Made by a program: the position numbers and the translations under genes | Origin: a virus | DNA: 20,649 nucleotides | Reading direction: 5' to 3' (one strand) | Virus record (IMG/VR): IMGVR_UViG_3300017917_003183 | Coordinates: 1 to 20,649 of that record | Part shown: one piece after another, positions 1-9,085 of the stretch | Position numbering within the stretch: position 1 is the stretch's first letter | How the letters are laid out: every line of letters starts with the position of its first letter | Notes under the pieces: model-generated | The model's input: the letters and a program-made list of their open reading frames with translations, nothing else | Database searches by the model: none | Told to the model about the DNA's origin: nothing

Positions 1-1053
1 AATAACATCTTCTTCTAAGGCGCTTCTTCCTGCTTGTGATGCAGTCCAAACTGGTATTCCATATTCCCCTGCCATTCCCCTTAACTCTTCGTACAACTCC
101 TCTAAGGCTTCGTGTTTGTCCTTTTTTGCATTGATCTTTAACAAGTCACCATAATCTACAATTACTAATGCTGGTGTTTTGCCTAACATGATTGTTTTTT
201 CCAAATGTGCTTTTATGCCCATTACACCAACTGATTTAGTTGGATAATACTTTATGATTAACTCGCCTCGAATAGATTTCATTTTTTCTTCAACGGTATC
301 CTGATGATTCTTAAGAGTTTGTGCATTGATACCTGTTATAACAGAGTCATAGCGTTGACCTACATAATTTTCATTAAGCTCTAATGTATAATGTATTACA
401 GTCTTACCTGCCTTAACAGCATTAGCTCCAATATTAATTAACATCCATGATTTACCAATACCCGCAGGAGCCATTACAACTCCTAATTCTCCCGGAGCTA
501 AACCGCCGTCCATTAAATCATCTATAACATCCCAACCGGTTGTAATAGTATGGCGAGAGGCTTCAGCATACCGAGCTGCAATGTTTAGCTTGTATTCTAA
601 TCCAATGTCAGTATCAGCGCCTGCCTTCATTGCACCATCAATCTTATTCTTTATTTCATCGTAATTACCCATTTTGAGTAATCCTACCGAATCCATAATA
701 GCTCGTTTAATTTCTTGATTCTTACAAAATCTTAAAATCTCATCTTTTACAAATGAAAGATCATCTGACTCCATGTATCGAAAAACTTCTTTGAGTTGTT
801 CCAATACAGCAGTTTTTAAAATGTCATTATCGATCTCCGTAATTTTAACTTTAAGTACGTCTTTTGACGGAGGAGATTTATATTCTTGAAAATGTGCTAA
901 TGTTGTTTCTAATAACCAACTATTTGCATCTGATTCAAAATAATCAGGTTGAATGATATCTGCAATTTGTTGTAAGAATGCTCGGTCGGTAAATAATGCC
1001 GCTATTGTTTTTACTTGAAAACTATAACCATACTCACTAAGGCGATCAGTCAT
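1..1053 (-). CDS. DnaB/gp41-like replicative DNA helicase (3' end beyond the window)
   Basis: This is the ATP-driven 5'-3' helicase that unwinds DNA ahead of the phage replication fork. The reading frame is open from an ATG at 1053 to the left edge, giving 351 codons, so the C-terminus is missing. Residues 195-202 form a Walker A loop (APAGIGKS) after the 'GGL.PGEL' lead-in typical of the RecA-fold core of DnaB helicases. LVIVD at 296-300 is Walker B. TASQAGRSA at 338-345 is the polar sensor and arginine region of this family. Residues 1-165 are the less conserved N-terminal domain. The start is supported by a very strong Shine-Dalgarno (GGGAGGT) 5 nt upstream. The first 8 nt overlap the end of the HNH gene. 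T4 gp41 is 475 residues, so roughly 100 residues probably lie outside. The family call is firm. Confidence 0.93.
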   Translation of the reverse strand, partial: MTDRLSEYGYSFQVKTIAALFTDRAFLQQIADIIQPDYFESDANSWLLETTLAHFQEYKSPPSKDVLKVKITEIDNDILKTAVLEQLKEVFRYMESDDLSFVKDEILRFCKNQEIKRAIMDSVGLLKMGNYDEIKNKIDGAMKAGADTDIGLEYKLNIAARYAEASRHTITTGWDVIDDLMDGGLAPGELGVVMAPAGIGKSWMLINIGANAVKAGKTVIHYTLELNENYVGQRYDSVITGINAQTLKNHQDTVEEKMKSIRGELIIKYYPTKSVGVMGIKAHLEKTIMLGKTPALVIVDYGDLLKINAKKDKHEALEELYEELRGMAGEYGIPVWTASQAGRSALEEDVI

Positions 1054-1651
1054 TTTTACCTCCCTTTCGAAGTATCCATGATTCTTTTATTTTTTGTCTA
1101 CGTAACATTTCTTTTTCTGGTGTTGATGCTTTGCCCGTAACTTTGGGATTATTTGTTAGAACTTTTGAAAGATTTTCGCGATGAATATCAGAAAATTTTC
1201 TGCCTTTTGCTTTTTCAGACATTTTCTTTTTTGTTTCAGATGAATGTCGATACCCATTTAATTTTCTCGTTTCTTGTTGTTTTTCAATTATTTTAGAATC
1301 TCTAGGCGGTAATTTTCTACCTCGTAAAGTGTTGCCAATTTTTTCGTTTGCTAACATCCTAATTCGTTCAAATTCGCGAGAACTTACATAATATGTTCTT
1401 TCATTATCTTTACTATTTTTCATAACTGCCATCATACGATATGCAAAAAATATCTTATCATTATTTGGATATATTTCACAAAGAAGCTTATGTATAATAA
1501 AATGTTCTCGTGCTGATAATTCAACTAAATTATTCGATTCATCAGTGCCACCTAAACACCTAGGAATAACATGATGCCGTTCATAATAGCCTTGCAACTT
1601 TCGATTACGAGCTCTATCAATTATAGCATCATGTATTCTTTGGTAATTCAT
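1046..1651 (-). CDS. HNH homing endonuclease with NUMOD3 repeats (copy 1)
   Basis: This is a free-standing phage homing endonuclease that would nick or cut DNA lacking the insertion and spread by recombination. The HNH core is ERHHVIPRCLGG at residues 24-35 followed by NLVELSAREHFIIHKLL at 41-57, so His26, His27, Asn41, His50 and His54 are candidate metal or catalytic residues. The C-terminal half is lysine-rich and carries NUMOD3-like DNA-binding segments (SSETKKKMSEKAKGRKFS and a following SDIHRENLSKV). It is paralogous to the HNH gene at 4731-5372, about half identical by eye over the first 100 residues. It sits between the exonuclease and helicase genes and overlaps the helicase start by 8 nt. 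I see no Shine-Dalgarno before its ATG; a TATAAT ends 7 nt upstream, so the message may be nearly leaderless. Confidence 0.9.
   Translation of the reverse strand: MNYQRIHDAIIDRARNRKLQGYYERHHVIPRCLGGTDESNNLVELSAREHFIIHKLLCEIYPNNDKIFFAYRMMAVMKNSKDNERTYYVSSREFERIRMLANEKIGNTLRGRKLPPRDSKIIEKQQETRKLNGYRHSSETKKKMSEKAKGRKFSDIHRENLSKVLTNNPKVTGKASTPEKEMLRRQKIKESWILRKGGKND
1057..1063 (-). promoter_or_regulatory. Strong helicase ribosome-binding site inside the HNH gene
   Basis: The minus-strand sequence AAAGGGAGGTAAAAATG places a near-perfect anti-16S match (GGGAGGT) 5 nt before the helicase ATG at 1053. In the HNH frame the same bases encode its last residues (K-G-G-K-N-D-stop). The helicase start is therefore well fixed, and its initiation signal depends on the 3' end of the homing endonuclease gene. 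Confidence 0.75.
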
Positions 1652-1687: not shown

Positions 1688-2746
1688 TTATTTTTGTGTT
1701 TGTTTTGCGAAAGCGTTTAATGATAACCAAGTATTGTTTAACCAATCCGGTAAATTTTTCATTATTGCCCACATTTTGTCTTCATAAAAAAGACGTTGAA
1801 ATTCTGCTCTATTCAATTCGGTAACAGGCTGTTCCATAATGCCTCGAATCTTGCTAGCAGTTTGTGCCGGAATATCTAGCAATTTAATATTCATTAGTTG
1901 ATAATTTTGATGCAATACTCGTTCATTATCTAATATCTTTTGATATGACTTAGATTCCTTTAAACTGATTTTGCTTTTTTCTATCAACGCATCAACTGTA
2001 AACTCTTCTGGGTGTGATAATTCTGGAATTAGTTTTAAAATAGTCTTAGGGCCTATACCATTAACTCCAGGAATATTATCTGATGCATCTCCCGTAAATG
2101 ATCTGTATACAACCATATTAGCTGGATGTATTCCGAACTCTTCTATTACCGCTTCGGTATCATACATTTTCTTTTTAATAGGAGACCATACTTGAATTCT
2201 GTCATCTACAAGTTGATAAAAGTCTCTATCCGTTGAAACGACGGTAATTTTTTTACATTCCGTTTCATACATTTGAGCTATGTATGCAATTGCATCGTCT
2301 GCTTCAATACCATCAATTGCCATAAATGTAACCGGCAAACAATCTAAATATGAAACTAATCTACTAAACTGATGTCGCATTGATTCTTGTTCTTCTTCAA
2401 TTGATGTGTCATGATGATCGTGTCGTCGCAGTTTAGTCTTATTGGCTCGATTACCTTTATAATCTCCATAAATCTTTCTGCGGCGGGCATTACCACCTTT
2501 GCCATCAAATACAATTATCAATCTGCTTGGTTTGAAATCTCTAACAATTTTGCCTATAGAATATAAAAATCCAGTAATACCACCGATATGGTCACCGTCT
2601 TCATTATATGCAGGTGTTGCTCCGAAACTTCTGATAAAGGTGTTCAACCCGTCCACTACCATGAGATGATCATTGGGAGCAGACGGATTAGAACTCTTTT
2701 CTTGTTGTAACTGTTTAAATAATTCTTGATACTTATTCTTCATCAT
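1688..2746 (-). CDS. 5'-3' exonuclease / flap endonuclease (T4 RNase H-like)
   Basis: This is a structure-specific 5' nuclease that would remove RNA primers and 5' flaps during lagging-strand synthesis. The two-metal active site is visible as the usual series of acidic residues: VVDGLN (Asp32), VFDG (Asp81), the arginine/lysine clamp NARRRKIYGDYKGNR (86-100), EADD (148-151), STDRDF (Asp173, Asp175) and GDASDNIPG (Asp220, Asp223). The last runs into a helix-hairpin-helix (GVNGIGPKTILKLI, 227-240). The length of 352 is close to T4 RNase H (305) plus a short N-terminal extension. ATG at 2746 was chosen; a second ATG follows immediately. Its start overlaps the 3' end of the recombinase gene by 14 nt, which suggests coupled translation. 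Fully intact. Confidence 0.94.
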   Translation of the reverse strand: MMKNKYQELFKQLQQEKSSNPSAPNDHLMVVDGLNTFIRSFGATPAYNEDGDHIGGITGFLYSIGKIVRDFKPSRLIIVFDGKGGNARRRKIYGDYKGNRANKTKLRRHDHHDTSIEEEQESMRHQFSRLVSYLDCLPVTFMAIDGIEADDAIAYIAQMYETECKKITVVSTDRDFYQLVDDRIQVWSPIKKKMYDTEAVIEEFGIHPANMVVYRSFTGDASDNIPGVNGIGPKTILKLIPELSHPEEFTVDALIEKSKISLKESKSYQKILDNERVLHQNYQLMNIKLLDIPAQTASKIRGIMEQPVTELNRAEFQRLFYEDKMWAIMKNLPDWLNNTWLSLNAFAKQTQK

Positions 2747-3512
2747 AAACTTCGTCAGTGATTATTACATCATCAATACCGCCGTCGATACCTGCTTGGT
2801 ATTTGAAAATATAAGCATCGCAAATTCTTTGATATAACCTTTCTTTTACTTCTGCGTTAGAAATAACTTTGTCAATAAAGTTTTTAGATTGAAATTTAAT
2901 TTCACCAAATGACTCTCCAGTTTCGATATCAACATCTTCCAATGTATAATGTGCTCCGGATTGTTTAACTAAATCAAACTTTTTCATTGTTTCTAACCAT
3001 CCTCCATAATTGTCAATTCCAGAATCATAATAAATTTCGTAATTAACTTTTCTATGAGGAGGCCCCATTCTATTCTTAACAACTTGAACTTCTGTTTTAC
3101 TTCCTACAACTTGTTCAACGCCATTAATTTTAGCTTTGATCATGCCTGTATTTTTCAAACGAAGTCTAACTGATGCGTGGAATGGAATTGCTTTTCCACC
3201 TGCAGTTGTCCATTGGTCACCAAATGATACACCCATTTTGGTACGTAACTGATTGGTAAATATGAGACAAATTCTTTCTCTAGCAATCCAATTGGTAACT
3301 TTACGCATTGCTTTTGATAGAATAATTGATTTTGATGTTGCATAACCATCTTTATCATATTCTGCAGACATTTCAATTTTAGTTGAAGCACCCATTATTG
3401 AGTCTACAATGATTGTAACTAAACGATCTTTGTCTGACTTACGGACTTGTTCAACTATAGTTTCAATTGTTTCGAATATTTCTTCAACTGTTTCTAACGG
3501 AACGTACAACAT
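2733..3512 (-). CDS. recA: RecA/UvsX-family recombinase, C-terminal fragment
   Basis: This is the downstream part of a RecA-fold strand-exchange protein. It starts, if translated independently, at an ATG eight codons after an in-frame UAA. LVTIIVDS (31-38) is the Walker B strand with Asp37. IFTNQLRTKMG followed by TTAGGKAIPFHASVRL corresponds to the region around DNA-binding loop L2 in RecA (compare E. coli INQIRMKIG and TTGGNALKFYASVRL). VVKNRMGPP is the next conserved RecA segment. The C-terminus ends acidic (DEVYDEE), as in many RecA proteins. It lacks Walker A and the catalytic Glu, which lie in the upstream fragment, so it cannot hydrolyse ATP alone. The sequence between UAA and ATG (A-I-G-V-D-L-K-T) is clean RecA homology in the same frame, so the true product is presumably one chain of about 386 residues. 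No convincing Shine-Dalgarno precedes the ATG. Confidence 0.88.
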   Translation of the reverse strand: MLYVPLETVEEIFETIETIVEQVRKSDKDRLVTIIVDSIMGASTKIEMSAEYDKDGYATSKSIILSKAMRKVTNWIARERICLIFTNQLRTKMGVSFGDQWTTAGGKAIPFHASVRLRLKNTGMIKAKINGVEQVVGSKTEVQVVKNRMGPPHRKVNYEIYYDSGIDNYGGWLETMKKFDLVKQSGAHYTLEDVDIETGESFGEIKFQSKNFIDKVISNAEVKERLYQRICDAYIFKYQAGIDGGIDDVIITDEVYDEE

Positions 3513-3536
3513 GGTTTTTAAATCAACACCAATAGC

Positions 3537-3893
3537 TTACAAAAATTCACTACTAGTTGCGGCTTCTGTATCAATATAAACAGCTAAGCCGCCCTTCTTT
3601 TGTGTTTCTGCTAAGGTATGTGATGCTAATAAAGATTTACCCGATGCTTCAAGTCCAGTTATCTCAGTTATTCTTCCTACCGGAAAACCTCCGTGTGGTC
3701 TATTAGATATTGCTAAATCCAATGAATCACAACCAGATGAAATCCATTCTTTTACATTGCTAGGAGAATCATCATCGCCGGCTAAAAAGAAAGCAGTTTT
3801 TAGCGATTGCCCTTTGAATTGTTTGTTGATTGATTCTGCAAGGGTGTTTGCTAAGCTGTCCTCGATTTCCAGTTTACTTTTACTTTTTGCCAT
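3537..3893 (-). CDS. recA: RecA/UvsX-family recombinase, N-terminal fragment ending at an in-frame UAA
   Basis: This is the first 118 codons of the phage recombinase. Residues 80-87 (GLEASGKS) are Walker A. VYIDTE at 105-110 ends in the Glu equivalent to the catalytic Glu96 of E. coli RecA (FIDAE). Residues 1-45 resemble the polymerising N-terminus of RecA proteins. The frame ends '...TSSEFL' then TAA (3539-3537), exactly where RecA relatives continue without a break, and the codons after TAA stay in frame and homologous. One substitution (CAA, GAA or AAA to TAA) explains it. The start is well supported: the SSB stop merges with AAGGAG, 7 nt before this ATG. It lies between SSB and exonuclease, the normal recombination/replication company. 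The interruption may be real, an assembly error, or read through. Confidence 0.9.
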
Positions 3894-3906: not shown

Positions 3907-4677
3907 TTAAGAATTGAATAGATCATCAAATGCAGATGCTACATCTGTTTGTTTAGTTGCTGCTGGTTTAGCTGCTTTTGCAGGAGCCGGTGCTACCGTT
4001 TCTTCCTCATCTTCTTCAACATCAGAATCTGCATTTTCTGGATTCATCCATTCTGCTAATGCTTTTTCTAATTCTTCATAAGTTGGCTCAGGAAATAAAT
4101 CAGTGATTTGAGGTTGATTCATAATCTTTTGTGCAATTTCTTTGTCTTCTGTAGCTGGTTGTGTATTAGGCTTAACACGAATTGCTGTTTTAGGATATGC
4201 GCCACCTTCTGCTGGAGTAAATTCTACGTCAATGTCACGACCATTGATTAAGTCTGTAATATCACCATAATCTGGATCTGAAATAATGCTTAACAATTCA
4301 GTATAAATTGTTTTACCGAATCCCCAAAACTTAACTCCTTCAGATTCTTTACCACGAATAATAACGGGAACATAAGTACGCATCTTAGGTTCAATTTTAC
4401 GACCCATTAGCCATTCATCTTTATCGCCAGTCTTTTTTAGCTTTTCTGCAAATTCAACAATCGGATCTGCATTACCAAATGTAATTGGAGACAACATAGA
4501 CTTCTTACCGATGTCATAATGAAAATACAATTCTAAAAACGGATTGTCTTTGCGATGAACGTAAGGTACTACGCGGATTCTTGTTTTTCCGGCTTCGGGT
4601 TTCCAAAGATTCTGCTTTTTGTCATCGGTTTTGTTTAATTGATTAAGTTTCGCTTTTATAGCGTCTAAGTTTAACAT
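3907..4677 (-). CDS. 32: gp32-like single-stranded DNA-binding protein
   Basis: This protein coats single-stranded DNA during replication and recombination and recruits other fork proteins through an acidic tail. The 256-residue chain matches the T4 gp32 plan. Residues 1-20 are a basic, helix-forming N-terminal segment (LNLDAIKAKLNQLNK) used in gp32 for cooperative binding. The OB-fold core follows, with KTRIRVVPY and FHYDIGKKSMLSP early and KVKFWGFGKTIY-like aromatics near the middle. The C-terminus is a flexible Ala/Pro/Lys linker after an acidic run (SDVEEDEEE), ending SAFDDLFNS. Unlike T4 gp32, no cysteines for a zinc site are seen, as in several distant relatives. The ATG at 4677 follows AAAAGGA. 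The gene leads directly into the recombinase; its TAA stop forms part of the recombinase Shine-Dalgarno, showing that UAA normally terminates here. Confidence 0.93.
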   Translation of the reverse strand: MLNLDAIKAKLNQLNKTDDKKQNLWKPEAGKTRIRVVPYVHRKDNPFLELYFHYDIGKKSMLSPITFGNADPIVEFAEKLKKTGDKDEWLMGRKIEPKMRTYVPVIIRGKESEGVKFWGFGKTIYTELLSIISDPDYGDITDLINGRDIDVEFTPAEGGAYPKTAIRVKPNTQPATEDKEIAQKIMNQPQITDLFPEPTYEELEKALAEWMNPENADSDVEEDEEETVAPAPAKAAKPAATKQTDVASAFDDLFNS

Positions 4678-4730: not shown

Positions 4731-5372
4731 TTACCGGTTAAATCCAAATTTAATTTTGATTTTTTTATCTAGTCTAGTTTGTTTTAAACTCTCTCGTATT
4801 TTTTGTTTAGTTTCTTCTGAATGTGGTTTTCGCTTTTTTCCTAAATGAGCTAATCGTTTCTTTTCTTTTGTTTCATCAGAATCTTTAATAATACCCATTA
4901 CGCCTTTATTCCATGGAATATTATTTCCATTTCGGTTTCTAGATTCCCATATTTTTGTTGTGTGTTCTTTAGACTTCTTTTTACCCATTAACGCTGTTTT
5001 TATTTTTTGCTTTGTTTCAGGAGTATGTGTCCATTTTTCTCGATTGAGTTGCGTATCTCGTATAATTTCAATTACGTCTAATCGTAAGCTTTCATATTCT
5101 CGAGCAGAAATTTTATATGTTCTTTGATTTTTTTTAGATTTATATACAACCATTGCCCAAAAAGCAAGTTGTATACCTTTTATATTAGGATAAATTTCAC
5201 AAAGAAGTTTATGTGCTATGAAATGTTCTCGAGCTGTTAAGTCGACTAAATTTGATGCATCATTGTTCCCGCCTATACAACGTGGTATGATATGATGTCT
5301 TTCTTTATAACCTAGCAATGTTCTTGTTCGAGCTCGGTCAATTAATTGTGTATAAATTCGTTCATAATTCAT
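4731..5372 (-). CDS. HNH homing endonuclease with NUMOD3 repeats (copy 2)
   Basis: This is a second free-standing homing endonuclease, clearly related to the one at 1046-1651. The HNH core is ERHHIIPRCIGG (24-35) and NLVDLTAREHFIAHKLL (41-57), with the same His26, His27, Asn41, His50 and His54. The C-terminal part holds several NUMOD3-type DNA-binding repeats, recognisable as H(T/S)xETKxKI followed by GKK (around residues 116-140 and again near 185-200). Residues 143-200 include a basic stretch rich in Lys. It stands directly upstream of SSB with a 53-nt AT-rich gap and downstream of the hypothetical gene at 5465-5851. AAGGA lies 10 nt before the ATG, and a promoter candidate sits just upstream. 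It appears intact. Confidence 0.9.
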   Translation of the reverse strand: MNYERIYTQLIDRARTRTLLGYKERHHIIPRCIGGNNDASNLVDLTAREHFIAHKLLCEIYPNIKGIQLAFWAMVVYKSKKNQRTYKISAREYESLRLDVIEIIRDTQLNREKWTHTPETKQKIKTALMGKKKSKEHTTKIWESRNRNGNNIPWNKGVMGIIKDSDETKEKKRLAHLGKKRKPHSEETKQKIRESLKQTRLDKKIKIKFGFNR

Positions 5373-5464: not shown

Positions 5465-5851
5465 TCATCGCCAACTAATTTTCTTAAAGAAAACAAGCGG
5501 AATTATGCGATATCCGCCTTCATCGGTTAAGATAAAGGAATTTTCATACATGCTCCAATTTAACATGTATGTTTTATCTAGTACTCCATTGTTTACTACG
5601 CGAATAATTTCATTAAGTGCATTAACCGTATATAATGTATTGGTTTCTTTTTTGCGATGAATGCTTATTGTATTCTGTCCTCTTTGCGTTCCTGCATCTG
5701 CATTATAAGTACAATACAAATTATCTGCAGCATCGGCATTTGCAAATACAAAGATTCGCTGTTCTGGTATTATGTAGCTTTGTTGTACATAATCTACTAC
5801 TATGTTTAAATCTGATCTATGTGCAAATGTGCAAAGTAATTGTGTTTTCAC
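5465..5851 (-). CDS. Conserved-looking hypothetical phage protein, 128 aa
   Basis: I cannot assign a function. The protein opens with MKTQLLCTFAHRSDLNIVVD, has alternating hydrophobic strands with a central positively charged segment (SIHRKKETNTLYTVNALNEIIR, about 73-94), and ends in a short basic tail. There is no signal peptide, membrane helix or cysteine cluster, so it is probably a small soluble alpha/beta protein. From memory, proteins with a 'QLLCTF...HRKKETNTLYT(V/I)NALN' layout occur as hypotheticals in marine T4-like phages; this is recollection and not a search. It lies 13 nt downstream of the 418-residue protein and is the last gene before the HNH/SSB block. The ATG at 5851 is the only early start. 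Its TGA stop abuts the AT-rich promoter-like gap. Confidence 0.72.
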   Translation of the reverse strand: MKTQLLCTFAHRSDLNIVVDYVQQSYIIPEQRIFVFANADAADNLYCTYNADAGTQRGQNTISIHRKKETNTLYTVNALNEIIRVVNNGVLDKTYMLNWSMYENSFILTDEGGYRIIPLVFFKKISWR

Positions 5852-5864
5852 TCTTCTTCATTCC

Positions 5865-7121
5865 TTACGATTGTTGTTGTATAAATTCATATTTAGGATA
5901 TACTGATTTTAATCCGAATACCCACATTCCTTGAGACAATCCTATAATAGCCCAATCTGCTGCATTTGTTACTAATGGAACTCCTGGATTATTTACATCA
6001 TATGCAATTAATCCTAAAATTTCTTGAAAGAATCTATTTTTTGTTGAATTCAATAATTGAATCATGTAATTTGGATTACGAACTAAATTATTATGTTTTA
6101 ATTTATTAAACCAAATTGCTGCATTATTTGTTTCGTTGCTAATTTGTTGTCCGATTTTAATAGAAACCTCATTAGCTTCTCCGGCGCCTTGTTGTATTTT
6201 TTCAAAATCTTCAGCCGTTATCCAGTATGACAATGTTTGACTTCCAGTTTTGATTGTTAATCTAGTATCTCGTATATCTGCATCTAAATCAGATTTCCAT
6301 AAAATATCATGAATAAGTTCCCATCCTTTATGCAATTGTGACCAACCACTCTTATAACTTATTTCAGTACTAGCTACATTATCCATTAACGGAACAAACA
6401 CTCTTTCTAATACTTGAATCAAATCATTTAATTGTTTCCATGAATGTGGATCTACTAAATCTTTTAATTCTTCAAATGAATCTCCCATATCTGCTAATGG
6501 TTTTACGATATCATTAAAAAAGTTTACGGTTTGTGTTAATAAATCTCCATCTATAGGCATACCAGATTTTGCGGGACGGAATGTTTTGCCTTCGGGAGCT
6601 TTACCCATTTCGCCAGATTTGGTTGGTCTAGGCAATTTGCCAATTTCTTTAACTTCCCATTCTCCCGTTGGCATTACGATATCATGAGATGCCGTTCCTC
6701 CTGGTTGTGAATCTTTTACTGCTAATAAGATTTGTATTTCACCCTTTCCCATACCCGCTGCTGATTTGCCGGTAGGTAACACATCATAAAATTTAGTAAA
6801 AGCTTTGTAACCACCTGACATATATGAGTCAATGGTATGTTGCCGATAATTTTTATCAAATTCTGCTTTTTCTTGCGGCGATAAATCTTCGTAACGATCA
6901 TTGATTTGTTGTGTCAAATCGTCAGATAAATTTAACTGAGAAAATTCTACTTGTTCTGATATTATGCCTTGAGCTCGATTCACCACAACGCGAGCTTCCA
7001 ATGGAGTTAATTCAGTCATTTCTAAAATAACATGATATAATAACTCATAATCTTTTGGACGCGTTGGATACCCTTTAGGTAATCTGTAACTCCATTCTGT
7101 TAGTATCGAATCTATAGTCAT
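5865..7121 (-). CDS. Unassigned protein with a PD-(D/E)XK nuclease-like residue pattern
   Basis: No firm family is recognised for this 418-residue soluble protein. The middle contains MGKGEIQILLAV (124-135), then SHDIVM with Asp147, then EWEVKEIGK with Glu156 and Lys158. The order G-x-G-E, D, E-x-K with hydrophobic strands around it is the arrangement of the PD-(D/E)XK nuclease fold, so a DNA nuclease is a plausible reading. A Pro/Gly/Lys-rich stretch (161-190) follows, and the C-terminal half looks helical with many Trp/Asn. The N-terminus (EWSYRLPKGYPTRPKDYELL) may be a separate small domain. It overlaps the polymerase stop by 4 nt (ATGA), so the two are probably translated together. It could instead be a virion protein, since it follows the tail genes. 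Confidence 0.65.
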   Translation of the reverse strand: MTIDSILTEWSYRLPKGYPTRPKDYELLYHVILEMTELTPLEARVVVNRAQGIISEQVEFSQLNLSDDLTQQINDRYEDLSPQEKAEFDKNYRQHTIDSYMSGGYKAFTKFYDVLPTGKSAAGMGKGEIQILLAVKDSQPGGTASHDIVMPTGEWEVKEIGKLPRPTKSGEMGKAPEGKTFRPAKSGMPIDGDLLTQTVNFFNDIVKPLADMGDSFEELKDLVDPHSWKQLNDLIQVLERVFVPLMDNVASTEISYKSGWSQLHKGWELIHDILWKSDLDADIRDTRLTIKTGSQTLSYWITAEDFEKIQQGAGEANEVSIKIGQQISNETNNAAIWFNKLKHNNLVRNPNYMIQLLNSTKNRFFQEILGLIAYDVNNPGVPLVTNAADWAIIGLSQGMWVFGLKSVYPKYEFIQQQS

Positions 7122-8467
7122 ATGGTGATAGTATTCATTTTATCATAAATATTGCCAACTTTACATTTAACCGGGAAATTTCCTTGTTCTAATGTATTCT
7201 TGATTTGAGGCAATAATGTTTTTGCTTCTGAAAATTCAACATCAAACAAAATTGAATCGTATGTATAAAGAATCATACGAGTTTGATGTGATTTTAATAT
7301 GTCTTGTACTTGTTGCAATTTTTGAACAGATACTTCTGTTTCTAAGGCTTGTAAATAGTAATTAAACAATTTGTTTGCAGTCATTGCCTTTAATGTGTCT
7401 GCAGTTAGGCGCCGTTTAAGAACAGGCGTTTCTACATAATGCTTTGATTTCCATTTCGCCCATAAATCATATATAAATGTATTTACTTGCCGAAAGAAAG
7501 GTATTGATAAAAATTCCGAATCAATTCCTCCATAAAGCAATCTAAATGTAATCTGTTTGCTTTCCGCACGTTGTTCTTCTGTTAATTCTGTAACACCAAA
7601 ATAAAATTGTCCTAAATAATCATGTATTGACGATTCAGGTAATTCATAACCAATAAGTTTTGCAATAAGTCTAACATGATATGAATCAAAATCCATTTCT
7701 ACCAGTGCACCATTTTCAAATCGACTACAAAATGCAGAACGGGTACCATCTTCTTTATTCATTGCTGCAAAGTTAAAACCTCGATATGCATTACTTGGCC
7801 GGCCTGTAATGGTATGATAATTATATTGCGAATAAACTAAATTGTTTTTTACTATATCCGGAAGTTTAAACTCATCATTAACATGTAGTCCTGCTGACTC
7901 AATATTAGCAAATACGCGAGGATATGTTGAATTAAACTTAACATATGAATCAGACATTTCTGCATTGACACACATCGGCCAAGCATAGTGACGAATCTTT
8001 TGACACATTTCTAAATGTTTTTGTAATGGCACAATTGCATTAACATGGGGCAATGCTGCGTGCCGTCTCCAATAAAATTGATGAGCAGAAGTTGGATAAT
8101 GTGCTTCTTCATATGATTCTCCATATGTATACCACCACAAAGTCTTTACATCCCATACAGCATCTTTTCCTCCCGTTTGAAGCCACTGTTTCTTGTCATG
8201 AATAAAGATATTCTCTAATTCTAAAAACCTTGGGACAAGTTCTAGAAACCCCTTTACTTGTTCGGTATGTCGTAATGGAACAATACATTCATTCGTAGTT
8301 TCTGAATATATGTATATTGCAACTAATGGATTTTGTGTTACGTGAATAGTTGGGCTAGAAAATATAGGAACTAGTAACGTTTTAGTATTTCGGATACGAT
8401 CAAGTACGGCTATTACGTCAGATTCGTGATCTAGTATCATACTATGATAATATGAAAAAAATTGCAA
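7118..8467 (-). CDS. Small divergent family A DNA polymerase
   Basis: A Pol I-type polymerase, recognised by its motifs in order. HTITGRPS (218-225) matches the TGRLSS segment. VEMDFDSYHVRLIA (256-269) is motif A with catalytic Asp259. R300-x3-K304-x3-F308-x3-YG is motif B (O-helix). YVETP..KRRL (344-354) and NYYLQ (369-373) match YVETLDGRRL and NAPMQ. ILYTYDSILFDV (399-410) is motif C with catalytic Asp404. Oddities: motif A Glu710 (E. coli numbering) is His264, and motif C HDE reads YDS. Between the conserved 'IESAGLHV' (189-196) and TGR there are only about 25 residues where Pol I has its thumb. The N-terminal 170 residues resemble a 3'-5' exonuclease fold without the usual acidic residues. 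The frame may start at TTG 8467 or ATG 8440 (residue 10); neither has a good Shine-Dalgarno. Confidence 0.85.
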   Translation of the reverse strand: MQFFSYYHSMILDHESDVIAVLDRIRNTKTLLVPIFSSPTIHVTQNPLVAIYIYSETTNECIVPLRHTEQVKGFLELVPRFLELENIFIHDKKQWLQTGGKDAVWDVKTLWWYTYGESYEEAHYPTSAHQFYWRRHAALPHVNAIVPLQKHLEMCQKIRHYAWPMCVNAEMSDSYVKFNSTYPRVFANIESAGLHVNDEFKLPDIVKNNLVYSQYNYHTITGRPSNAYRGFNFAAMNKEDGTRSAFCSRFENGALVEMDFDSYHVRLIAKLIGYELPESSIHDYLGQFYFGVTELTEEQRAESKQITFRLLYGGIDSEFLSIPFFRQVNTFIYDLWAKWKSKHYVETPVLKRRLTADTLKAMTANKLFNYYLQALETEVSVQKLQQVQDILKSHQTRMILYTYDSILFDVEFSEAKTLLPQIKNTLEQGNFPVKCKVGNIYDKMNTITI

Positions 8468-9085
8468 TTATCCAAGATTTATATCACGGGGAACTACGAA
8501 ATCTGTATCTGTATAGAATTCTAATGGATTTGTTAATTTTTTTGAAATACCTGTTAATGAAAATTCAGCGGCGGCAATTTGTTTTTTATTTCGCGAAATA
8601 ACTCCTGGTTTGAAAACGCCATTCTGAATAGTATCTTCTATAGGTCCTGTTATATACCATTGCAATTGAACACCTTCATATAAATTTCTATCTATTTTAT
8701 TTGATTGCCATTCCGTCCATGTTTGTTCTGAAACTTCTATAAATAAAGTTTCGTTAACTTTTTTCAAAAAGAATCGTGTAACTACACCATCAAATCGATT
8801 CTGTTCAGTAATTGTTAATTTATATGTTGAGACATTTTTAAAAGATGTTTTTGGCTTCTTTAATGATTTGTATGCATTTAACGTCGGATCTGGTTTTGTA
8901 TATGGAATCAATTTAATTGATGTTACAGGATTCCATGAAGCACCTGAATAAGTTTCACCCGTACTATTATATGCATGATATAATCCGATGTAGTTTGAAC
9001 CCAATTCAGACATTAATTCTGAACCAGATGTATACAAATTATTTGTAATTTCATCAACTGAATAATATATTTTTAATCGTCCCAT
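8468..9085 (-). CDS. Probable virion/baseplate-associated protein, 205 aa
   Basis: Function is not established. The opening KIYYSVDEITNNLYTSGSELM and the segment YIGLYHAY...GETYSGASW (around 32-52) recall a group of structural proteins in large T4-like environmental phages that carry 'LYT.GGE.......YIG.YH' near the N-terminus; this is pattern memory. The rest is strand-rich with no membrane segment, signal or cysteine motif. The gene is sandwiched one base downstream of the baseplate hub gene and directly abuts the polymerase frame (its TAA is followed at once by the TTG). The tight linkage to the hub gene supports a baseplate or tail role. The ATG at 9085 is the natural start, 1 nt after the hub TAG. 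Confidence 0.65.
   Translation of the reverse strand: MGRLKIYYSVDEITNNLYTSGSELMSELGSNYIGLYHAYNSTGETYSGASWNPVTSIKLIPYTKPDPTLNAYKSLKKPKTSFKNVSTYKLTITEQNRFDGVVTRFFLKKVNETLFIEVSEQTWTEWQSNKIDRNLYEGVQLQWYITGPIEDTIQNGVFKPGVISRNKKQIAAAEFSLTGISKKLTNPLEFYTDTDFVVPRDINLG

What the first reader, a model, noticed from the sequence alone, without database searches (positions are those of the whole stretch)
7118..8467. Minimal family A polymerase with apparently dead exonuclease region and no visible thumb
Motifs A (Asp259), B (R300/K304/F308/YG313) and C (Asp404) are all present, so the palm and fingers look functional. But only about 25 residues separate the conserved 'E..GL.V' helix (189-196) from TGR (221-223), where Pol I has about 150 residues of thumb. 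The N-terminal part can be laid on a 3'-5' exonuclease domain (VPLRH at 63-67 as in 'YIPLGH'; IHDKKQW near the Exo II site), but the DxE of Exo I reads F-S-S (36-38) and the Exo II Asp is replaced. Motif A Glu710 is His and motif C HDE is YDS. The whole enzyme is 449 residues. This could be a thumbless, processivity-factor-dependent or specialised repair polymerase, or a degraded copy under residual constraint.
Basis: partly seen in the sequence, partly recalled or inferred. Interest (0 to 1): 0.76.

Follow-up and report, generated by a model that had tools for sequence, protein, structure and literature searches.

The report
Thumbless second phage DNA polymerase (divPolA1)
This gene encodes a small, conserved, probably active DNA polymerase that lacks the usual 'thumb' and proofreading site and is carried by large T4-like phages beside their normal polymerase; the family was described in 2024, but its job is unknown and it travels with an undescribed small protein.

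Summary
Window 8467/8440→7118 (minus strand) encodes a 440-449 aa family A polymerase. Motifs A, B and C are intact, the exonuclease-like domain has lost its Exo I acidic residues, and only 33 residues lie between the E..GL helix and the TGR Arg (127 in E. coli Pol I). It is not a decayed copy. Hundreds of relatives, almost all in viral contigs, share the short form; key catalytic residues are invariant in 353 of them, and median dN/dS is 0.085. An AlphaFold model (pLDDT 93) superposes on Bst Pol I without thumb helices. It belongs to a published family, divPolA1 (PMC11348598), so the main novelty claim falls. Long relatives also carry a full-size PolA or PolB (21 of 23 records) and usually a DnaG primase, so this is an accessory polymerase. 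What the paper's text does not mention: His is invariant at the Pol I E710 'steric gate' position, and a 128-aa protein of unknown fold (window 5465-5851) accompanies divPolA1 wherever the contig is long enough; in 50,697 phage records it occurs only in the six with divPolA1. Best reading: a proofreading-deficient, distributive gap-repair polymerase of the SSB/UvsX/5'-exonuclease/helicase module, helped on DNA by partners.

The parts
7118..8467 (-). divPolA1: thumb-less, exonuclease-inactivated family A polymerase (449 aa from TTG 8467; 440 aa from ATG 8440)
   Evidence: ORF; Pfam DNA_pol_A 47.5 bits; relatives; AlphaFold pLDDT 93.3; Bst Pol I Z 28.8
7961..8440 (-). N-terminal exonuclease-like domain (residues ~1-160) without Exo I acidic residues
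   Evidence: Superposes on the whole Bst/Klenow chain from its exonuclease domain onward; FSS in place of DxE; no conserved acid at residues 27-29 in 353 relatives
7799..7900 (-). Residues E181-R214: the stretch where Pol I carries its thumb; 33 aa here
   Evidence: Spacing 23-43 in 353 relatives vs 127 in E. coli Pol I; no thumb helices in the model
7670..7693 (-). Motif A, D250..R257, with invariant His255 at the Pol I E710 position
   Evidence: D250 100%, H255 100% of 353; hhalign to Pol I
7529..7570 (-). Motif B, R291..G304 (K295, F299, Y303, G304)
   Evidence: K295 99.7%, F299, Y303, G304 100%
7253..7261 (-). Motif C, Y394-D395-S396 (Pol I H881-D882-E883)
   Evidence: Y394 and D395 100%, S/A at 396
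5465..5851 (-). n128: 128-aa protein of undescribed family and unassigned alpha/beta fold, constant companion of divPolA1
   Evidence: 336 loci with both, always same strand and downstream, no true exception; phages collection hits only the same six records (vs 7); dN/dS 0.069; pLDDT 93.9
5865..7121 (-). n418: 418-aa protein between divPolA1 and n128, found in only part of the family
   Evidence: Profile hits in 119 of the 373 loci with divPolA1; no Pfam, PHROG, NCBIfam or PADLOC hit
3907..4677 (-). gp32-like single-strand DNA-binding protein
   Evidence: Pfam gp32 50.3 bits; present in 130 of 130 loci with >=8 kb downstream
2733..3893 (-). UvsX/RecA-like recombinase, interrupted by one in-frame TAA at 3537-3539
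   Evidence: Pfam RecA on both halves; reading frame continues past the TAA, Gln at that place in L005
1688..2746 (-). Stand-alone Pol I-type 5'-3' exonuclease / RNase H
   Evidence: Pfam 5_3_exonuc_N 119 bits; 129 of 130 loci with >=8 kb downstream
8468..9085 (-). n205: conserved gene immediately upstream, at the end of a run of tail and baseplate genes
   Evidence: Present upstream in 160 of 160 loci with >=8 kb upstream

Best explanation
The gene is a member of divPolA1, a second, accessory family A DNA polymerase of large T4-like phages. Shown here: a Pol I palm and fingers with an invariant two-Asp active site, a retained but Exo I-less exonuclease-like domain, no thumb, strong purifying selection, and co-existence with a full-size replicative polymerase and usually a DnaG primase. 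Inferred: it adds short stretches of DNA without proofreading and falls off quickly, because the thumb that holds the primer-template duplex is missing. In effect it is a Pol I taken apart, with the polymerase in this gene and the 5' nuclease in a separate gene of the same cluster, filling gaps and patches left by Okazaki-fragment or recombination intermediates on DNA held by the gp32-like SSB, UvsX and probably the always-present n128 protein, which would supply some of the lost grip.
For: Catalytic Asp250 and Asp395, Lys295, Phe299, Tyr303, Arg214 and Gln364 (near-)invariant in 353 relatives. Model pLDDT 93.3, pTM 0.91; Bst Pol I large fragment Z 28.8, 406 residues at 3.1 A; Klenow E 1.3e-18. 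dN/dS median 0.085, maximum 0.197. Another full-size polymerase in 21 of 23 long records: PolB ~840 aa or PolA ~780 aa. DnaG primase in 14 of 21 records. Cluster divPolA1 - n128 - SSB - UvsX - 5'-exonuclease - helicase near-universal. A family A polymerase with Ser at the E883 position is active: Tt72 pol (PMC9324360). The divPolA1 paper also infers retained polymerase activity and a replication role (PMC11348598).
Against: I found no biochemistry for any member. The gap-filling role rests on gene neighbours only, and the whole cluster is conserved, so adjacency to any one gene is weak evidence. Invariant His in place of E710 is not explained by an ordinary DNA-synthesis role. The paper notes that the context of the 'regular' polymerase is less replication-like than that of divPolA1, which could reverse their roles.
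Confidence: 0.55

Rival explanations
1. divPolA1 makes RNA or mixed RNA/DNA: the invariant His at the E710 steric-gate position lets it use NTPs, so it acts as a primer-making or transcribing polymerase.
For: H255 in 100% of 353 sequences, while the regular family A enzyme of immuto and T7 gp5 keep Glu there; E710 is reported to block ribonucleotides in Pol I (PMC9324360). Family A palms have become RNA polymerases before (T7; discussed for divPolA2 in PMC11348598).
Against: A DnaG-type primase is found in 14 of 21 records, the rest being 76-126 kb contigs, so a replacement primase is not needed. F299 and Y303, the dNTP-type motif B residues, are invariant. His is also bulky and may still exclude the 2'-OH.
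Confidence: 0.13
2. divPolA1 is the main replicative polymerase and the full-size PolA/PolB is the auxiliary one.
For: divPolA1 sits in the conserved SSB/UvsX/5'-exonuclease/helicase cluster; the regular polymerase varies in family (PolA or PolB) between relatives and has a mixed neighbourhood with groES/groEL and nucleotide genes (PMC11348598).
Against: No thumb and no proofreading site, both poor traits for copying about 150 kb. The regular enzyme is full-size and, in immuto, keeps an Exo I DTE motif.
Confidence: 0.12
3. divPolA1 is a catalytically idle scaffold or regulator that keeps the Pol I fold.
For: Loss of thumb and exonuclease residues; H255 and S/A396 remove two of the four active-site carboxylates of Pol I.
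Against: The two essential Asp and the nucleotide-binding Lys/Phe/Tyr are invariant or nearly so in 353 sequences down to 24% identity, which a scaffold would not need.
Confidence: 0.1
4. A degraded polymerase gene drifting to loss.
For: Short length; missing domain; inactivated exonuclease.
Against: dN/dS median 0.085, window vs nearest relatives 0.13-0.16; the same short architecture in 353 relatives; no frame disruption.
Confidence: 0.01

Closest known systems
divPolA1 (Flavobacterium phage immuto and related phages; Virol J 2024, PMC11348598)
   Same: Same length, truncated thumb, inactivated exonuclease, intact palm catalytic residues, second polymerase in the genome, replication genes downstream. 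34.5% identical over 84% of the protein to the immuto protein named in the paper.
   Different: Nothing that sets it apart. Its own subgroup (58% identity or more, 33-aa linker) pairs with PolB in the long records examined, whereas immuto pairs with a second PolA.
E. coli / Bst DNA polymerase I (Klenow-type large fragment)
   Same: Fold of exonuclease-like domain, palm and fingers; motifs A, B, C. The Bst exonuclease domain is also inactive (own knowledge).
   Different: No thumb (33 vs 127 residues), E710->H, H881->Y, E883->S/A, no fused 5' nuclease.
divPolA2 (barbaviruses, PMC11348598)
   Same: Second PolA-type enzyme without a recognisable thumb, beside a regular PolB.
   Different: Per the paper it has an unrelated N-terminal domain, no exonuclease-like domain and variable neighbourhoods. 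Not compared by sequence here.
T4 RegA (translation repressor next to gene 43), compared with n128
   Same: Size (122 vs 128 aa) and a place next to a polymerase gene.
   Different: No profile similarity (hhalign prob 0.3).

Membership tests
divPolA1 | Sequence homology to Flavobacterium phage immuto divPolA1 | tested here: met
   tblastn 34.5% identity, E 2e-57, residues 62-439, against MW353176; full-length alignment
divPolA1 | Palm domain with main catalytic residues kept | tested here: met
   D250 and D395 invariant; K295, F299, Y303
divPolA1 | Truncated thumb | tested here: met
   33 vs 127 residues; no thumb helices in model
divPolA1 | 3'-5' exonuclease inactivated, all three catalytic Asp replaced | tested here: inconclusive
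   Loss of the Exo I DxE is clear from sequence. Exo II and III sites were not placed by a residue-level structural alignment here.
divPolA1 | Genome also encodes a regular DNA polymerase | tested here: inconclusive
   The window's own record is a 20.6 kb fragment. Long relatives have one in 21 of 23 records, including G001, whose divPolA1 is 85% identical.
divPolA1 | Replication genes downstream | tested here: met
   SSB, UvsX and 5'-exonuclease in the window; cluster conserved in relatives
Family A DNA polymerase (Pfam PF00476) | Score above curated cut-off | tested here: met
   47.5 vs 34.3 bits
DNA polymerase I (NCBIfam NF004397 / TIGR00593) | Score above equivalog cut-off | tested here: not met
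   31.3 vs 720 and 21.8 vs 600 bits: homologous, not a Pol I orthologue
divPolA1 as a working DNA polymerase | Primer extension activity | not testable with these tools
   No biochemical data found

The most novel reading that the evidence does not exclude
divPolA1 and the 128-aa n128 protein form an obligate two-subunit polymerase in which n128 (or a complex built on it) does in trans what the missing thumb does in Pol I, making a family A polymerase with a separable DNA-gripping part.
Probability: 0.17. Interest if true: 0.72.

Novelty: new member of a known kind. Interest (0 to 1): 0.45.

Why it matters
Widespread T4-like phages keep a second, stripped-down family A polymerase under strong selection, and I found no test of what it does. 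It could show how a polymerase works without a thumb. The invariant His at the steric-gate position and the constant companion n128 make two sharp bench questions: does it use rNTPs, and does n128 bind it?

Tried and rejected
Degraded copy: rejected by dN/dS and invariance. Replacement primase: weakened by DnaG in 14 of 21 records. n128 as a separate thumb of ordinary shape: its model is alpha/beta, not a pair of long helices. n128 = T4 RegA: no profile similarity, and 1REG is not among the rows listed by Foldseek or VIA. n128 fold: no PDB match with E<=0.001. VIA rows reach only Z 6.1, mostly RRM-like halves plus T-antigen origin-binding domains at Z 5.2-5.8. Viral rows are one family member (an uncultured Caudovirales protein, 40% identity) and then Rep/NS1-type proteins at E>0.1. 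This hints at an RRM/OBD-like DNA-binding arrangement but is within the range the tool calls unspecific. Weak PHROG/Pfam hits of n128 members are scattered and inconsistent. Mirror-tree: polA-n128 has the highest partial correlation for each of the two proteins (0.45), but SSB-helicase is higher (0.84) and the within-group result is mixed, so I do not rely on it. The accession of one published divPolA1 genome (LR796625) is not in the collections. Only 6 cell-genome contigs matched, all in metagenome-assembled bins, so no evidence of a cellular version. A PADLOC hit to PDC-S21 (17 bits) covers the palm and is taken as generic polymerase similarity.

Full report
Observation. The ORF is real, on the minus strand, 8467→7118 (449 aa from TTG; most relatives start at the ATG at 8440, giving 440 aa). 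Pfam DNA_pol_A is above its cut-off. A profile of 45 relatives aligns to E. coli Pol I (hhalign prob 97.3) with D250=D705, H255=E710, K295=K758, F299=F762, Y303=Y766 and D395=D882. From the E of the E..GL motif to the Arg of TGR is 33 residues here and 127 in E. coli (E541 to R668). The AlphaFold model is confident (pLDDT 93.3, pTM 0.91) and has no helices between residues 188 and 216 of the kind that build the Pol I thumb. It superposes on the full Bst Pol I large fragment: Z 28.8, 406 of 440 residues, 3.1 A; Foldseek's best hit is Klenow, E 1.3e-18. The N-terminal domain therefore is a 3'-5' exonuclease-type domain, and its Exo I DxE reads FSS. I did not place Exo II and III residue by residue.

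Not a decayed copy. In 353 near-complete sequences (166 clusters at 90% identity, 17 at 50%), D250, H255, F299, Y303, G304, Y394, D395, R214 and Q364 are 100% conserved and K295 99.7%. The thumb-region spacing is always 23-43 residues, with group-specific lengths (23, 33, 37, 41). Median dN/dS of 60 close pairs is 0.085 (0.039-0.197); the window against six near relatives gives 0.13-0.16. Only six cell-genome contigs matched, all in metagenome bins, so this looks like a phage family.

It is a published family. Virol J 2024 (PMC11348598; preprint PMC11188092) names divPolA1 in 14 phages (Flavobacterium phage immuto and relatives), with intact palm, truncated thumb, inactivated exonuclease, a 'regular' polymerase elsewhere in the genome and replication genes downstream. 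The window protein matches the immuto protein at 34.5% identity, E 2e-57.

Genome context. In 23 long relative records, 21 carry another full-size polymerase: PolB of about 840 aa in the window's own subgroup (including G001, whose divPolA1 is 85% identical) and in Microcystis phage Mel-JY01, or PolA of about 780 aa in the immuto subgroup; the two without are fragments of 93 and 114 kb. A DnaG-type primase is found in 14 of 21 records, and the seven without are contigs of 76-126 kb. So divPolA1 is an extra enzyme in an otherwise complete replisome. The cluster order is n205 - divPolA1 - (n418) - n128 - gp32-like SSB - UvsX - 5'-3' exonuclease - DnaB-type helicase. Among loci with at least 8 kb downstream, SSB and helicase are present in 130 of 130, the 5'-exonuclease in 129 of 130 and UvsX in 125 of 130.

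A constant companion. A 128-aa ORF (window 5465-5851), without a hit for the window protein in Pfam, PHROGs or NCBIfam, lies downstream of divPolA1 on the same strand in all 336 loci that hold both. All 37 loci with divPolA1 but not n128 have less than 2.5 kb of downstream DNA, and all 22 with n128 but not divPolA1 have less than 3 kb upstream, so no true exception was seen. Many loci are close kin, and the whole cluster is conserved, so linkage alone does not prove partnership. More telling, in 50,697 phage records n128 is found in exactly six, the same six in which divPolA1 matches over at least 80% of its length, whereas SSB, RecA and helicase families occur widely in phages (own knowledge). 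n128 is under equally strong selection (dN/dS 0.069), with an invariant H-R-x-K..N..Y..N..N pattern. Its model is confident (pLDDT 93.9), but no solved structure matches with confidence. The text of the paper does not mention it, though its Figure 4b, which I could not see, may draw it.

Mechanism. Shown: Pol I-like active site, no thumb, no Exo I acids, strong constraint, extra to a regular polymerase and usually a primase. Inferred: short, unproofread DNA synthesis. Family A thumbs contact the product duplex (PMC9324360), so loss of the thumb should make the enzyme distributive or partner-dependent. The co-clustered stand-alone Pol I-type 5'-3' exonuclease suggests a Pol I in pieces for gap or primer repair in replication and recombination. 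Ser in place of E883 is compatible with activity (Tt72 pol, PMC9324360). The invariant His in place of E710, a residue reported to exclude ribonucleotides in Pol I (PMC9324360), is unexplained and leaves open an RNA-using role; the regular PolA of immuto and T7 gp5 both keep Glu there.

Verdict. Real, well conserved, very probably active, and a member of a known but uncharacterised family. Added here: the scale of the family, the absolute conservation of His at the steric-gate position, quantitative evidence against decay, and the n128 association. I rate it new member of a known kind with moderate interest.

Noticed in passing
window 3537-3539 (minus strand): The uvsX gene carries one in-frame TAA about 118 codons in; the frame continues with normal UvsX sequence and near relatives have a sense codon there (Gln in L005). 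It could be a real nonsense mutation, a sequencing or assembly error, or suppression.
   Followed up: partly
window 1046-1651 and 4731-5372 (minus strand): Two related HNH homing endonuclease genes (PHROG 655) sit in the replication cluster, one between n128 and the SSB, one after the 5'-exonuclease.
   Followed up: partly
window 5865-7121 (minus strand): n418, a 418-aa protein of unknown family that overlaps the polymerase stop codon and is present in about a third of the loci. It contains a GEWEVKE stretch that could be an ExK nuclease motif; untested.
   Followed up: no
LR756508.1 (L004 record), about 260.6-266.9 kb and 47.4-48.1 kb: The 484 kb huge phage has PolB matches split over two reading frames (1022 and 625 aa) about 5 kb apart, suggesting an insertion or split gene, plus a separate DNA polymerase III alpha-type match in a 575-aa frame.
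   Followed up: no
NC_055915.1, 32-42 kb (L399): The regular PolA of immuto lies next to groES/groEL and genes annotated for 7-deazaguanine DNA modification (DpdA, QueF, FolE), so these phages probably modify their guanines, which might matter for which polymerase copies them.
   Followed up: no
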